Of a DNA stretch of 64,000 bases, positions 13,478 through 29,365 are shown in pieces. The notes beneath the pieces were generated by a model, which had not been told where the DNA came from, made no database searches, and saw nothing but the letters and a program-made list of their open reading frames with translations. The position numbers and the translations under genes are program-made. This DNA comes from Oscillospiraceae bacterium (lineage in GTDB: Bacteria > Bacillota > Clostridia > Oscillospirales > Ruminococcaceae): assembly GCA_017550285.1 (NCBI GenBank), contig JAFZPP010000046.1, positions 44,444-108,443 on the forward strand, read 5' to 3'. The number at the start of each line of letters is the position of its first letter. The first letter of the stretch is position 1.

Positions 13478-13723
13478 ATGGAATCGAGAGTCGCAGTCAT
13501 TGCGATCATCGTGCAGGACAGCAGCTCCGCCGCGAGCATCAATGCGCTCCTGCATGAATACGACCAGTTTATCATCGGGCGCATGGGCATCCCCTACCGC
13601 ACAAAGGGAATCAGCATCATCAACATTGCCATTGACGCGCCGCAGGATGCGATCAACCGCCTCGCAGGCGGCATCGGCAGACTCAGCGGTGTCAGTGCCA
13701 AAACCGTTTACGCGCCCGCATGA
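13478..13723 (+). CDS. TM1266-type iron-only hydrogenase system putative regulator
   Basis: An 81-residue protein that matches the small ACT/CopG-like TM1266 family, with MESRVAVIAIIV at the start, a central GRMGIPYR and IINIAIDAP, and LAGGIGRLSGVSAKTVY at the end. The family is usually found with the [FeFe]-hydrogenase maturation genes hydE, hydF and hydG, where it is proposed to be a regulator. Here none of those lie alongside; instead it is first in the nitrogenase-like operon. GGAAAGGA lies upstream of the ATG. Its target is unknown, but its place suggests control of, or a ligand-sensing role in, the downstream system. Confidence 0.85.
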   Translation: MESRVAVIAIIVQDSSSAASINALLHEYDQFIIGRMGIPYRTKGISIINIAIDAPQDAINRLAGGIGRLSGVSAKTVYAPA

Positions 13724-13825
13724 ACAAAAAATTTCATCATTATGACGCTTTCTTCTGATGCCAAAACGCAGCGCACACGCTGTCTTGCGGCAAAAGTACG
13801 ACAGCCGGACATATGCAACCGGTAC

Positions 13826-13864
13826 AGCCGTATTTTCTTTTTCGGAAGAGGATACGGCTTTTTT
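13826..13864 (+). terminator. Terminator-like hairpin (possible attenuator) before the first NifH-like gene
   Basis: AGCCGTAT (13826-13833) pairs with ATACGGCT (13852-13859) and is followed by TTTTT. It sits about 25 bases before the NifH-like start, inside a 164-base leader that also holds a small CAGCG/CGCTG hairpin at 13769-13782 and a second copy of ACAGCCG at 13801. It could end the short TM1266 transcript or act as an attenuator. Confidence 0.6.
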
Positions 13865-13887
13865 ATGTCCGCGGAAAGGAAATCACC

Positions 13888-14658
13888 ATGATCAAAATTG
13901 CGATATACGGCAAAGGCGGCATCGGCAAATCGACGATCTCCGGCAATCTGTCGGCGGAATTTGCCGCGAGAGGTCTGCGCGTCATGCAGATTGGCTGCGA
14001 CCCGAAGGCAGATTCGACCGCGCTGTTGCATCACGGCAGCCGCATCCCGACCGTTTTGCAGCTCGAGCGCGAAAGGGGAAACAAAATCGCGCTCGAAGAT
14101 ATTGTCACCGTCAGCGAAAGCGGCGTGATCTGCGTAGAGGCGGGCGGACCCGTGCCGGGCGTCGGCTGCGCGGGCAGAGGCATCATCAATGCGCTCGAAA
14201 CGCTCAAAAAGCTCGGTGCCTACGAGAAATATCAGCCGGATATCGTACTCTATGACGTCCTCGGCGACGTTGTCTGCGGCGGCTTCTCCATGCCGATGCG
14301 CAAGGGCTATGCCGACCGTGTTTTCGTGGTCACATCCGGCGAAAAAATGGCGCGCTATGCAGCGGCGAATATCTGCATGGCAGTGCAGAATTTTCAGGGG
14401 CGCGGCTATGCATCGCTCGGCGGTCTGATTCTCAACTGCCGCGGCGTTCCCGACGAGCAGGCGCTGACGGAGGCGCTCGCTGCGGATTTTGATACAAAAA
14501 TCGTCGGAACGATTCCGCGTTCACAGGAGATTCAGCAGGCGGATGCCGAGGGATGTCCGTTTATTGTCCGGTATCCGGATTGTCAGGCGGCTGTGCAGCT
14601 CCGTGCGCTGGCGGATGCGATGCTGAAAGAATGTGAGGCATCAGATGCAGCAGTATGA
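13888..14658 (+). CDS. NifH-like ATP-dependent reductase (first copy)
   Basis: A 256-residue P-loop protein very close to nitrogenase iron protein. The Walker A GKGGIGKST is at residues 8-16, the switch region DPKADST follows, and the two Cys that bind the bridging [4Fe-4S] cluster are at about 94 (GVGCAGRG) and 130 (DVVCGGF). The Arg two residues after the first Cys is the site ADP-ribosylated in true NifH. It would deliver electrons one at a time to the D/K-like proteins at the cost of ATP. The start has GGAAAGGA upstream; the stop overlaps the next gene by 14 bases. A true nitrogenase reductase is unlikely because no nitrogenase proper is present. Confidence 0.9.
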   Translation: MIKIAIYGKGGIGKSTISGNLSAEFAARGLRVMQIGCDPKADSTALLHHGSRIPTVLQLERERGNKIALEDIVTVSESGVICVEAGGPVPGVGCAGRGIINALETLKKLGAYEKYQPDIVLYDVLGDVVCGGFSMPMRKGYADRVFVVTSGEKMARYAAANICMAVQNFQGRGYASLGGLILNCRGVPDEQALTEALAADFDTKIVGTIPRSQEIQQADAEGCPFIVRYPDCQAAVQLRALADAMLKECEASDAAV

Positions 14659-27930: not shown

Positions 27931-28093
27931 TTATATTGTAACGGATATCGGCGGCGATTATGCCTATTTGCAGCAGACCGATACTGACAGCGCCGAGCCG
28001 TTTCAGGTCGCCATGGCACTTCTGCCGCCGGAGACCGACATCGGCACAAAGCTGCGCGGATTTATGGGCATGTTTGAAGTAATTGAAGCATGA
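27917..28093 (+). CDS. Small protein, unknown
   Basis: A 58-residue protein whose ATG overlaps the end of the glyoxalase-fold gene by 14 bases, with GGAGG six bases upstream. It is acidic, has no Cys, and contains QVAMALLPPETDIGTKL, perhaps a small beta-barrel or cofactor-binding fold. I do not recognise the family. Confidence 0.7.
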   Translation: MEQHDYIVTDIGGDYAYLQQTDTDSAEPFQVAMALLPPETDIGTKLRGFMGMFEVIEA

Positions 28094-28154
28094 GGAATTG
28101 CGATACAAGCATTTCTCACTGCACATTTCTGATTCAAAAATGAGGTGAAGAAGG

Positions 28155-28337
28155 ATGCCGAAGATCATTTTCTGGGCACTGGTAATCTACGAGGCAATTT
28201 TCATCTTCCGGATGTGCCGTGCGGCGAAAAGGCACAAGGCGGAGCAGACGGAAGAAGCCAAAAAAGCACTTGACCGCGAAACATTCTTTGCGATTGCGGG
28301 CGGCGCGGTATTTGTAGCGTTGCAAATGTTATTATGA
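28155..28337 (+). CDS. Small single-helix membrane protein, unknown
   Basis: A 60-residue protein with hydrophobic segments at about residues 3-18 and 45-60 around a charged middle (HKAEQTEEAKKALDRE). It is preceded by GAGGTGAAGAAGG and lies just before hypE. A membrane role is likely; no family is recognised. Confidence 0.6.
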   Translation: MPKIIFWALVIYEAIFIFRMCRAAKRHKAEQTEEAKKALDRETFFAIAGGAVFVALQMLL

Positions 28338-28357
28338 GAAAAAGGAGTTCTGATAGT

Positions 28358-29365
28358 ATGAGCGAAAAAACAGTGACGCTTGCGCACGGTGCAGGCGGTA
28401 CGCAGACGAACGAGCTGATTGACAGCGTTTTCAAGGCGCATTTTGCAAATCCGATGTTCACCGGCGACGATGCTGCGGTTCTGCCGCAGATCAGCGGCAA
28501 AATTGCAACCTCGACCGACGGATTCATCGTATCTCCGTGGAAATTCAACGGCGGCAATATCGGCAAGCTCTCGATCTGCGGAACGGTCAATGATCTCTCG
28601 TGCATGGGCGCAAAGCCGCTCTATCTGACCTGCGCATTTGTGATTGAGGAGGGATTCTCCATGGATGCGCTCGAGGAAATCGCAGCAGCAATGGAGAAAA
28701 CCGCAGCAGAGGTCGGCGTGCGGATTGTCGCAGGCGATACGAAGGTCGCAGGCAAGGGACAGTGTGACGGCGTATTCATCACGACGACCGGCATCGGCGA
28801 GATCATGCCGCAGGCGCATACATCCGGCACACTTGCAAAGGCGGGCGATGCCGTGATCGTGACCGGCGATGTCGGACGCCACGGCTGCACGATTCTGATT
28901 GCGCGCAATGATTTCGGCATCGAATCGGATGTAGACAGTGACTGCGCGCCGCTCTGGGAAACGGTGCAGTCGCTTTACGATGTGACCGATGAGATTCATG
29001 TCATCCGCGATGCAACGCGCGGCGGTGTCGGCACGGTGCTCTATGAGATTGCAGGACAGAGCGGCGTCGGCATCCGTCTTGATGCAGCAAGCGTTCCGGT
29101 TGACCCGCGTGTGAAGGGCGTCTGCGGCATGCTCGGACTGGAACCGCTGTATCTGGCATGTGAGGGCAGACTGGTGATTTTTGCGCCGCAGGAGCATGCA
29201 GAGCAGATTGTTGCAAAGCTGCGCGCGGGCAAGTATTCGCAGAATGCCGCGATCATCGGCAAGGTGACGGCGGAGGATGCCGGCAAGGTCATCGTGGAGA
29301 CAGAGATCGGCACGCAGACGATTCTGCCGCAGCCGAAGGGCGAGCTGCTGCCGCGCATCTGCTGA
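28358..29365 (+). CDS. hypE: Hydrogenase expression/formation protein HypE
   Basis: A 335-residue HypE. The N-terminus has AHGAGGTQTNELI, the AIRS/PurM-type ATP fold includes FTGDDAAVLP and TSTDGFIVSP, and the C-terminus ends in PRIC. That terminal Cys receives the carbamoyl group from HypF and is then dehydrated to the thiocyanate that yields CN. It looks complete and active. AAAAGGAG lies upstream of the chosen ATG (an earlier in-frame start was rejected). Confidence 0.95.
   Translation: MSEKTVTLAHGAGGTQTNELIDSVFKAHFANPMFTGDDAAVLPQISGKIATSTDGFIVSPWKFNGGNIGKLSICGTVNDLSCMGAKPLYLTCAFVIEEGFSMDALEEIAAAMEKTAAEVGVRIVAGDTKVAGKGQCDGVFITTTGIGEIMPQAHTSGTLAKAGDAVIVTGDVGRHGCTILIARNDFGIESDVDSDCAPLWETVQSLYDVTDEIHVIRDATRGGVGTVLYEIAGQSGVGIRLDAASVPVDPRVKGVCGMLGLEPLYLACEGRLVIFAPQEHAEQIVAKLRAGKYSQNAAIIGKVTAEDAGKVIVETEIGTQTILPQPKGELLPRIC

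What the first reader, a model, noticed from the sequence alone, without database searches (positions are those of the whole stretch)
13478..29365. Two nitrogenase-like systems joined to HypCDEF in one long operon-like run
Seen: a single-strand run of genes, many overlapping by a few bases, holds two NifH-like, two NifD-like and two NifK-like proteins, a methyltransferase, a flavin-type protein and then hypF, hypC, hypD and hypE. No hydrogenase subunit, hypA, hypB, nifB, nifE or nifN lies here. Known: HypCDEF build the Fe(CN)2CO unit, and NifH/DK relatives do ATP-driven reductions on a metal site or tetrapyrrole. Inference: the Hyp set may make, or help make, an organometallic iron cofactor for a nitrogenase-like enzyme, which would be a new pairing.
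Basis: partly seen in the sequence, partly recalled or inferred. Interest (0 to 1): 0.93.

Follow-up and report, generated by a model that had tools for sequence, protein, structure and literature searches.

The report
Nitrogenase-like route replacing HydG in hydrogenase assembly
Gut and rumen bacteria carry a conserved gene cassette that joins two nitrogenase-like protein sets to the HypCDEF machinery, and none of the 50 cassette-bearing genomes checked has a recognisable HydG, the enzyme known to make the carbon monoxide and cyanide ligands of [FeFe]-hydrogenase, so the cassette likely helps build that metal centre by a different route.

Summary
In detail: a + strand run (13478-29365) holds TM1266, two NifH/D/K-like triplets and intact hypF, C, D, E. 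The order is conserved: of 80 named loci, mostly Oscillospiraceae with some Lentisphaerota, all 52 with 7.5 kb after D2 carry hypC and hypD there. In relatives the cassette also holds hydE (59 of 84 loci) and hydF (39 of 84); hydG is in none. HydG over its cut-off is found in 0 of 50 cassette genomes, against 112 of 219 genomes of the phylum. All 14 genomes with D1 are HydF+ and HydG-; of 169 other HydF+ genomes 9 are HydG-. [NiFe]-hydrogenase is absent from 47 of 50. A shorter variant puts H1-D1-K1 between hydE and hydF, where relatives have hydG. Best reading: a HydG-independent H-cluster pathway in which HypCDEF would supply the Fe-CN/CO unit and ATP-driven nitrogenase-like complexes would process it for HydE/HydF. 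Function is untested. Searches of an open-licence paper library found no description.

The parts
13478..13723 (+). TM1266-family putative regulator of the [FeFe]-hydrogenase system
   Evidence: TIGR03959 105 bits, PF21699 101 bits; found before D2 in 61 of 67 loci with 4.5 kb before D2
13888..14658 (+). H1: NifH-like ATPase, P-loop and both [4Fe-4S] cysteines kept
   Evidence: PF00142 286 bits; TIGR01287 302 bits, below its 394 cut-off; cysteine motifs kept in 68 of 68 relatives, P-loop in 67 of 68
14645..15955 (+). D1: NifD/NifE-like subunit shared by both variants; invariant C53, C57, C117, C145, C430
   Evidence: PF00148 88 bits; alignment A2 of 19 sequences; one clade across variants
15966..17126 (+). 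K1: NifK/NifE-like partner of D1
   Evidence: PF00148 101 bits; best solved match NifE 70.9 bits
17572..18342 (+). H2: second NifH-like ATPase
   Evidence: PF00142 291 bits; P-loop and cysteine motifs kept in 78 of 78 relatives
19617..20903 (+). D2: second NifD/NifE-like subunit, tied to the Hyp genes; invariant C69, C70, C126, C129, C224
   Evidence: PF00148 100 bits; alignments A1/A4; AF2 pLDDT 84 and nitrogenase fold
21102..22130 (+). K2: partner of D2 (342 aa)
   Evidence: PF00148 58 bits; alignment A5; present in 52 of 52 loci with 7.5 kb after D2
23592..25913 (+). HypF carbamoyltransferase (predicted cyanide ligand synthesis)
   Evidence: TIGR00143 760 bits; zinc fingers kept in 67 of 67 relatives
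26242..26451 (+). HypC, N-terminal Met-Cys kept
   Evidence: TIGR00074 61 bits, PF01455 76 bits; MC motif in 68 of 68 relatives
26448..27491 (+). HypD, predicted scaffold for the Fe(CN)2CO unit
   Evidence: TIGR00075 403 bits; CGTH and GPGCPVC in 66 of 66 relatives
28358..29365 (+). HypE, C-terminal Cys kept
   Evidence: TIGR02124 413 bits; C-terminal P-x-[IVL]-C in 55 of 55 relatives

Best explanation
This conserved cassette tracks genomes that have [FeFe]-hydrogenase maturases but lack HydG, and it likely replaces HydG: HypCDEF would make an iron unit with cyanide and carbon monoxide ligands, and the two ATP-driven nitrogenase-like complexes would reduce or rebuild it and hand it to HydE and HydF for H-cluster assembly. 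Shown here: the gene set, its conservation, the absence of HydG over its cut-off, the presence of HydE, HydF and HydA in the own genome, intact Hyp and NifH-type motifs, and a predicted nitrogenase-superfamily fold. Inferred from known families (recalled): HypF/HypE make cyanide from carbamoyl phosphate; HypC/HypD assemble Fe(CN)2CO; NifH-type proteins drive low-potential electrons into the D/K proteins at the cost of ATP. Inferred and untested: H2-D2-K2, found together with Hyp, acts on the Hyp product; H1-D1-K1, found in both variants and often next to HydE, makes the product used by HydE. In the variant without Hyp, an imported metal complex would be the starting material.
For: Phylogenetic profile: 14 of 14 D1+ genomes are HydF+ HydG-; 9 of 169 D1- HydF+ genomes are HydG- (Fisher p 2.5e-15, relatedness not corrected). 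HydG over cut-off in 0 of 50 named cassette genomes, R. bicirculans 80/3 included. Replacement in place: of six loci of HydG+ relatives read, five have hydE-hydG-hydF, three of them with TM1266 first; HydG-less G040 and G169 have hydE-H1-D1-K1-SBP-hydF. Sister contrasts: G169 against HydG+ G207 (family f54), G259 against HydG+ G146 and G287 (f33). hydE in 59 and hydF in 39 of 84 cassette loci, hydG in 0. Rearranged cassettes in G187 and G259 keep H2-D2-K2-HypFCDE-D1-K1 together. HypD+ genomes of the family (11 of 119) split into 5 with D2 and no [NiFe], 6 with [NiFe] and no full-length D2. In variant B (G040) the ABC ATPase carries a TM1266 domain (PF21699, 64 bits). Own HydA has the three H-cluster motifs tested and follows two genes of 167 and 635 codons. 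R. albus 7 makes H2 with two [FeFe]-hydrogenases (PMC6776011, passages), and the two R. albus strains held here (AR67, KH2T6) have the cassette and no HydG over cut-off; strain 7 itself was not examined.
Against: No experiment. Eight HydF+ genomes lack both HydG and D1 even after one of the nine (G197) proved to hold a HydG piece at a contig end, so HydG loss has other causes or solutions. Of 27 genomes tested for HydA, six (G004, G020, G051, G054, G057, G091) have it without HydF or HydG over the cut-off, so HydA genes occur without any known maturase. Fe(CN)2CO does not match the H-cluster ligand set (2 CN and 3 CO on two irons, recalled), so a rearrangement or an extra CO source is needed. 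Variant B has no Hyp, so Hyp cannot be the only source of ligands. In the window's own genome hydE and hydF lie on other contigs. Three of 50 cassette genomes do have a [NiFe]-hydrogenase match. One paper states that hydG exists in Ruminococcaceae except three F. prausnitzii strains (PMC9147846, one passage). Completeness of the 50 named genomes is not told.
Confidence: 0.74

Rival explanations
1. One reading: HypCDEF makes an Fe-CN-CO unit that becomes the permanent cofactor of the nitrogenase-like enzyme, which reduces an unknown substrate; the tie to [FeFe]-hydrogenase is only shared regulation.
For: Hyp set complete with tested motifs intact; HypC and HypD follow D2 in 52 of 52 loci with enough DNA; D/K proteins of the nitrogenase superfamily.
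Against: Does not explain why HydG is found in none of 50 cassette genomes, why H1-D1-K1 stands between hydE and hydF in place of hydG, nor the H1-D1-K1 variant without Hyp.
Confidence: 0.12
2. A narrower form that overlaps the best explanation: the nitrogenase-like proteins make only one ligand, for example CO from CO2 or an imported compound, while cyanide comes from HypF/HypE; HypC/HypD merely carry iron.
For: Nitrogenases and NifH-type proteins are known to reduce CO2 to CO (recalled); H1-D1-K1 exists without Hyp.
Against: HypC and HypD are kept in 52 of 52 loci with enough DNA, with full motifs, which suggests a full Fe(CN)2CO assembly; two separate H-D-K sets would be excessive for one ligand.
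Confidence: 0.2
3. HydG was lost and its role is filled by another tyrosine lyase (ThiH) or by stray CO and cyanide; the cassette serves an unrelated reduction.
For: Hits of 171-222 bits to the HydG model, taken as ThiH by length and span but not scanned as such, occur in 17 of 50 cassette genomes; weak HydG-free activation in vitro is discussed in PMC9431212 (section 17 read).
Against: 33 of 50 cassette genomes have no such hit, and all hits listed end by model position 400 of 470; the cassette's tie to hydE/hydF/TM1266 is left unexplained.
Confidence: 0.06
4. The Hyp genes serve a [NiFe]-hydrogenase elsewhere and sit beside the nitrogenase-like genes by chance.
For: Three of 50 cassette genomes have a PF00374 match.
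Against: 47 of 50 and 5 of 5 cassette genomes have none; gene order kept across phyla and kept as a set after rearrangement.
Confidence: 0.02

Closest known systems
HydEFG pathway of [FeFe]-hydrogenase maturation
   Same: HydE, HydF, TM1266 and the HydA client are present; in G040 and G169 H1-D1-K1 has the operon place of hydG
   Different: HydG, described as the source of CO, CN and the Fe(CO)2CN synthon, is absent; Hyp and nitrogenase-like proteins stand in its place
HypCDEF branch of [NiFe]-hydrogenase maturation
   Same: HypC, D, E, F over curated cut-offs with the tested motifs
   Different: No [NiFe]-hydrogenase in 47 of 50 cassette genomes; no hypA/hypB among the cassette's proteins
NifEN, scaffold of FeMo-cofactor assembly
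   Same: Nearest solved relatives by profile for D1, K1 and K2, next after one alpha chain for D2; a NifH-type ATPase goes with each D/K pair
   Different: No NifB or other FeMo-cofactor gene in the cassette; 11-20% identity in the fold matches listed
Nitrogenase-like reductases: CfbCD (F430), DPOR (BchLNB), methylthio-alkane reductase
   Same: H + D/K architecture and fold
   Different: H1 and H2 are under the curated cut-offs of CfbC, BchL and BchX; D/K proteins under every equivalog cut-off they match; none of these systems is tied to Hyp or Hyd genes (recalled)

Membership tests
HydEFG maturation system | HydE and HydF present | tested here: met
   Own genome: HydF 511 bits, HydE 528 bits, on other contigs; hydE in 59 and hydF in 39 of 84 cassette loci (3 of the 84 loci repeat contigs)
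HydEFG maturation system | HydG present | tested here: not met
   0 of 50 cassette genomes over cut-off; own genome only 184-bit and 63-bit hits against a cut-off of 312
HydEFG maturation system | [FeFe]-hydrogenase client present | tested here: met
   PF02906 best hit over 325 bits in 5 of 5 variant A genomes of the family sample and 217-345 bits in 6 of 6 variant B genomes; motifs intact in the own HydA. Not tested in the 50 named genomes nor in G169, G187, G259
[NiFe]-hydrogenase maturation (Hyp) | HypC, D, E, F with known functional motifs | tested here: met
[NiFe]-hydrogenase maturation (Hyp) | [NiFe] large subunit in the genome | tested here: not met
   absent in own genome and in 47 of 50 cassette genomes
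[NiFe]-hydrogenase maturation (Hyp) | HypA and HypB | not tested
Nitrogenase (N2 fixation) | NifH/NifD/NifK over curated cut-offs | tested here: not met
   H1 302 and H2 306 bits against 394; D1 no NCBIfam match; K1, D2, K2 far under cut-offs
Nitrogenase (N2 fixation) | NifB in the genome | not tested
   none among the cassette proteins; no genome-wide search
HydG-independent H-cluster assembly (proposed) | CO/CN ligands not derived from tyrosine; hydrogenase activity lost with the cassette | not testable with these tools
   needs genetics and spectroscopy

The most novel reading that the evidence does not exclude
[quoted passage not shown] A reduced version keeps one nitrogenase-like complex and imports the precursor through a dedicated FecBCD-type transporter whose ATPase carries a hydrogenase-system regulator domain. 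Many 'nitrogenases' counted in rumen and gut surveys by NifH would then be hydrogenase assembly factors.
Probability: 0.5. Interest if true: 0.97.

Novelty: categorically new. Interest (0 to 1): 0.94.

Why it matters
HydG is described as the enzyme that makes the CO and cyanide of the H-cluster (PMC9431212 section 17 and passages, PMC11736057 passages). A widespread HydG-free route would change the picture of how H2-producing enzymes of the rumen and human gut are made, give a nitrogenase-superfamily protein a role in hydrogenase assembly, and give HypCDEF a client other than [NiFe]-hydrogenase. It could help explain why nitrogenase-type genes are commonly encoded but little expressed in rumen and gut surveys (PMC6776011, PMC12578642, passages). 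The route is open to test in R. albus, a culturable H2 producer.

Tried and rejected
Rejected: chance neighbours (order conserved); Hyp for a hidden [NiFe]-hydrogenase; ordinary nitrogenase, CfbCD or DPOR (curated cut-offs not met); ThiH as general HydG substitute (33 of 50 cassette genomes lack a ThiH-like hit). The methyltransferase, PPOX protein, CdiI-like, GNAT, pyrophosphatase-like, glyoxalase and small membrane genes were considered as parts and left out: they were found in only 1 to 9 of 84 loci.

Zheng 2014 on R. albus 7 is not held, so its content is known here only through citations. Papers seen only as listings: all, PMC13339137 and PMC6391272, PMC8003979, PMC7460606 and PMC6802093, PMC9679718, and nine of the twelve listed.
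Full report
1. What is in the window. The + strand run 13478-29365 holds, in order, TM1266, H1, D1, K1, a small membrane protein, H2, a PPOX-type flavin protein, a class-I methyltransferase, D2, K2, a CdiI_3-like protein, a GNAT protein, HypF, a pyrophosphatase-like fragment, HypC, HypD, a glyoxalase and HypE. The four Hyp proteins are over their curated cut-offs. H1 and H2 are clear NifH relatives (302 and 306 bits) but under the curated cut-offs of NifH (394), CfbC (402), BchL and BchX. 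The window lies in contig 8 of a 3.4 Mb draft genome; a 98% identical D2 protein is labelled Oscillospiraceae bacterium.

2. The cassette is conserved. A scan of genome contigs with a D2 alignment matched 520 stretches, 515 of which encode relatives of D2 in the wide sense (tblastn E <= 1e-3); the best 80 were kept. These come mostly from Ruminococcus and other Oscillospiraceae, with several Lentisphaerota and one short contig of a Synergistaceae MAG. Of the 52 loci with at least 7.5 kb after D2, K2, HypC and HypD are present in 52, HypF in 50 and HypE in 48; of the 67 loci with at least 4.5 kb before D2, H2 is present in 67, K1 in 66, D1 and H1 in 65, TM1266 in 61. Known functional residues are kept: HypC Met-Cys 68 of 68, HypD CGTH and GPGCPVC 66 of 66, HypE C-terminal Cys 55 of 55, HypF zinc fingers 67 of 67, [4Fe-4S] cysteines of H1 68 of 68 and of H2 78 of 78, P-loop of H1 67 of 68 (reading frames under a length limit were left out of each count). 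The seven extra genes of the window were found in 1 to 9 of 84 loci and look like passengers of a few close relatives.

3. The neighbours point to [FeFe]-hydrogenase. In many relatives one or two more genes stand between TM1266 and H1: HydF and HydE (R. albus HydE 571 and HydF 555 bits). Among 84 loci (80 named and 4 unnamed; L052, L053 and L055 have the contig lengths of L085, L079 and L094 and are taken as repeats), HydE is found in 59, HydF in 39, HydG in none, HydA in 4 (its ORF rule loses some overlapping genes, in the Lentisphaerota loci above all, so these are lower bounds). In the window's own genome HydF (511 bits) and HydE (528 bits) are on other contigs, and HydA, with its three H-cluster motifs, follows two genes of 167 and 635 codons.

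4. HydG is missing. Family sample, 119 genomes, no completeness filter: HydF over cut-off in 64, HydG in 48, plus G049 with HydG in pieces. HydF+ HydG- are 15: the five with the full cassette (G000, G035, G065, G071, G113), six with H1-D1-K1 only (G022, G030, G032, G040, G063, G093) and four others (G016, G043, G088, G116). Phylum sample, 219 genomes of at least 80% completeness: D1 profile at 459 bits or more in four (G000, G169, G187, G259), all HydF+ HydG-; HydF in 120, HydG in 112; five further HydF+ HydG- genomes (G197, G221, G236, G266, G306). The samples share G000. Over both, 14 of 14 D1+ genomes lack HydG, against 9 of 169 other HydF+ genomes (Fisher p 2.5e-15; relatedness not corrected). 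G197 later showed a HydG piece at a contig end, so the nine are really eight. In the family sample D1 was found through a D2 query, which could miss a distant D1, and then identified by D1 scores of 310-398 bits. Of 50 named cassette genomes (50 of the 80; three seem to be genomes of the family sample), HydG is over the cut-off in none; 17 have hits of 171-222 bits that I take for ThiH, and many have hits near 60-80 bits that I take for HydE by their span. Three weaker D hits (234-262 bits: G133, G249, G302) belong to genomes that have HydG; in G133 and G302, whose loci were read, the D proteins lie outside the D1 and D2 clades.

5. Replacement in place. HydG-bearing relatives read TM1266-hydE-hydG-hydF (L203, L205, L207) or hydE-hydG-hydF (L204, L206); in L208 a HydA gene precedes hydG-hydF. 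HydG-less G040 and G169 read TM1266-permease-ATPase-hydE-H1-D1-K1-substrate-binding protein-hydF. So H1-D1-K1 stands where hydG stands. The other variant B loci differ in detail: G032 has hydE-H1-D1-K1 with hydF further along, G093 and G030 have hydE and TM1266 near but hydF elsewhere, G063 has TM1266 but hydE and hydF on other contigs, G022's contig is too short to tell. In G040 the transporter is of the FecCD / Peripla_BP_2 class (siderophore, haem, corrinoid importers) and its ATPase ends in a TM1266 domain (PF21699, 64 bits); like fusions are suggested in G063 and G169 by phmmer scores of 66 and 55 bits to TM1266.

6. Two modules. D1 of both variants is one clade (19 rows, 100/100) and D2 another (11 rows, 100/100). 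H1-D1-K1 is common to both variants; in the loci read, H2-D2-K2 goes with HypCDEF. In G187 the set is rearranged to TM1266-H2-D2-K2-HypFCDE-D1-K1-H-hydF, and in G259 to H2-[D2K2 fused]-HypFCDE-D1-K1, with hydF and hydE elsewhere, so the genes stay together through reshuffling. The plain reading is that H2-D2-K2 + Hyp supply what the variant without them imports.

7. [NiFe]-hydrogenase is not the client. In the family sample HypD occurs in 11 of 119 genomes: five with full D2 and no PF00374, six with PF00374 and no full-length D2. A seventh PF00374 genome, G022, has no HypD and belongs to variant B. Of 50 named cassette genomes three have a PF00374 match, each over model positions 1-69 only.

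8. Fold. AF2 models of D1 (pLDDT 85) and D2 (pLDDT 84) match nitrogenase-superfamily chains, with C. pasteurianum NifK first and NifEN chains among the best (TM-scores by query length 0.57-0.70 in the rows listed). By profile, NifE is the best solved relative of D1 (40.8 bits), K1 (70.9) and K2 (31.9), and follows one nitrogenase alpha chain for D2 (49.6 against 56.9). A scaffold role as in NifEN is therefore the nearest analogy; it is weak evidence by itself.

9. Mechanism proposed. Known (recalled; partly seen in PMC9431212 section 17 and passages, and PMC11736057 passages): HydG cleaves tyrosine to CO and CN and delivers an Fe(CO)2CN synthon to HydE; HydF carries the [2Fe] cluster to HydA; HypCDEF make Fe(CN)2CO. 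Inferred: here HypF/HypE make cyanide, HypC/HypD assemble the Fe-CN-CO unit, H2-D2-K2 reduces or rebuilds it, H1-D1-K1 makes the form taken by HydE, and HydE/HydF finish as usual. The ligand count (Fe(CN)2CO against an H-cluster with two CN and three CO on two irons) demands either a ligand rearrangement or a CO source; nitrogenase-type CO2 reduction is one possibility.

10. Literature. The library holds open-licence PubMed Central papers only, so a description in a subscription journal would be missed. Searches for nitrogenase-like + HypD + HypF, HydE/F/G + 'lack HydG' (27) and HydG + HypD + nitrogenase + Ruminococcus (28) gave no paper; HydG + R. albus (35, two papers, passages read), HydG-independent and its variants (36, four papers, passages of two read), HydE + HydF + nitrogenase-like (62, one paper on algae, listing) and HydG + HypF + HypE + H-cluster (75, three papers, one of them read in part) gave none that makes this link in what I saw. 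PMC9431212 (section 17 whole, passages elsewhere) reports HypCDEF without HypAB in several Clostridium acetogens, finds HydG by its motifs only in C. autoethanogenum, C. drakei and C. scatologenes (with an atypical candidate in the others), and asks whether acetogens have an unknown way to supply the ligands: a lead, not a test. PMC9147846 (passage) states that hydE and hydG exist in Ruminococcaceae except three F. prausnitzii strains; the profiles used here do not find HydG in the cassette-bearing Ruminococcus genomes. PMC6776011 (passages) records nitrogenases by NifH in 23% of 501 rumen genomes with low expression, and two [FeFe]-hydrogenases used by R. albus 7.

11. Weak points. No experiment; eight HydF+ genomes lack both HydG and D1; six of 27 genomes tested for HydA have it without HydF or HydG, so [FeFe]-hydrogenase genes can occur without any known maturase; genomes are mostly drafts, and completeness of the 50 named ones is not told; HypA/HypB and NifB were not searched genome-wide.

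Noticed in passing
L210 (G221) 2029-6536; L156 (G043) 5532-10114; L212 (G306) 3-5300: A third HydG-less arrangement: HydE-like and HydF genes close after SsuABC/NMT1-type ABC transporter genes, without HydG, Hyp or nitrogenase-like genes in the stretch. Two of the three HydE-like proteins are under the curated cut-off.
   Followed up: partly
G004, G020, G051, G054, G057, G091: Genomes with a HydA match of 297 bits or more but neither HydF nor HydG over the cut-off: hydrogenase genes without any recognisable maturase.
   Followed up: no
L195 (G259) 12187-14799: D2 and K2 are fused in one 870-codon frame.
   Followed up: no
L130 6006-8099: H1 and D1 appear to be read in one frame of 698 codons.
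   Followed up: no
L154 1770-2858: ABC transporter ATPase with a C-terminal TM1266 domain, next to HydE and H1-D1-K1.
   Followed up: partly
L157 (G116) 3935-10148; L197 (G133), L198 (G302): Two further families of NifH/D/K-like genes, in G116 and G302 next to FecCD-type transporter genes (named from sequence look, not scanned), without Hyp or Hyd genes in the stretch; function unknown.
   Followed up: partly
window 17096-17518, 18296-19550, 22151-23521, 25910-26239, 27499-27930: Passenger genes in the run (membrane protein, PPOX, methyltransferase, CdiI_3-like, GNAT, pyrophosphatase-like, glyoxalase) shared only with a few close relatives.
   Followed up: yes
window 10193-13273 (-): Large acyl-CoA dehydratase activase-type protein with DUF2229, next to the cassette on the other strand.
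   Followed up: no
L100 10001-11658: The D2 match spans 1658 bases where others span about 1275, suggesting an insertion or a broken frame.
   Followed up: no
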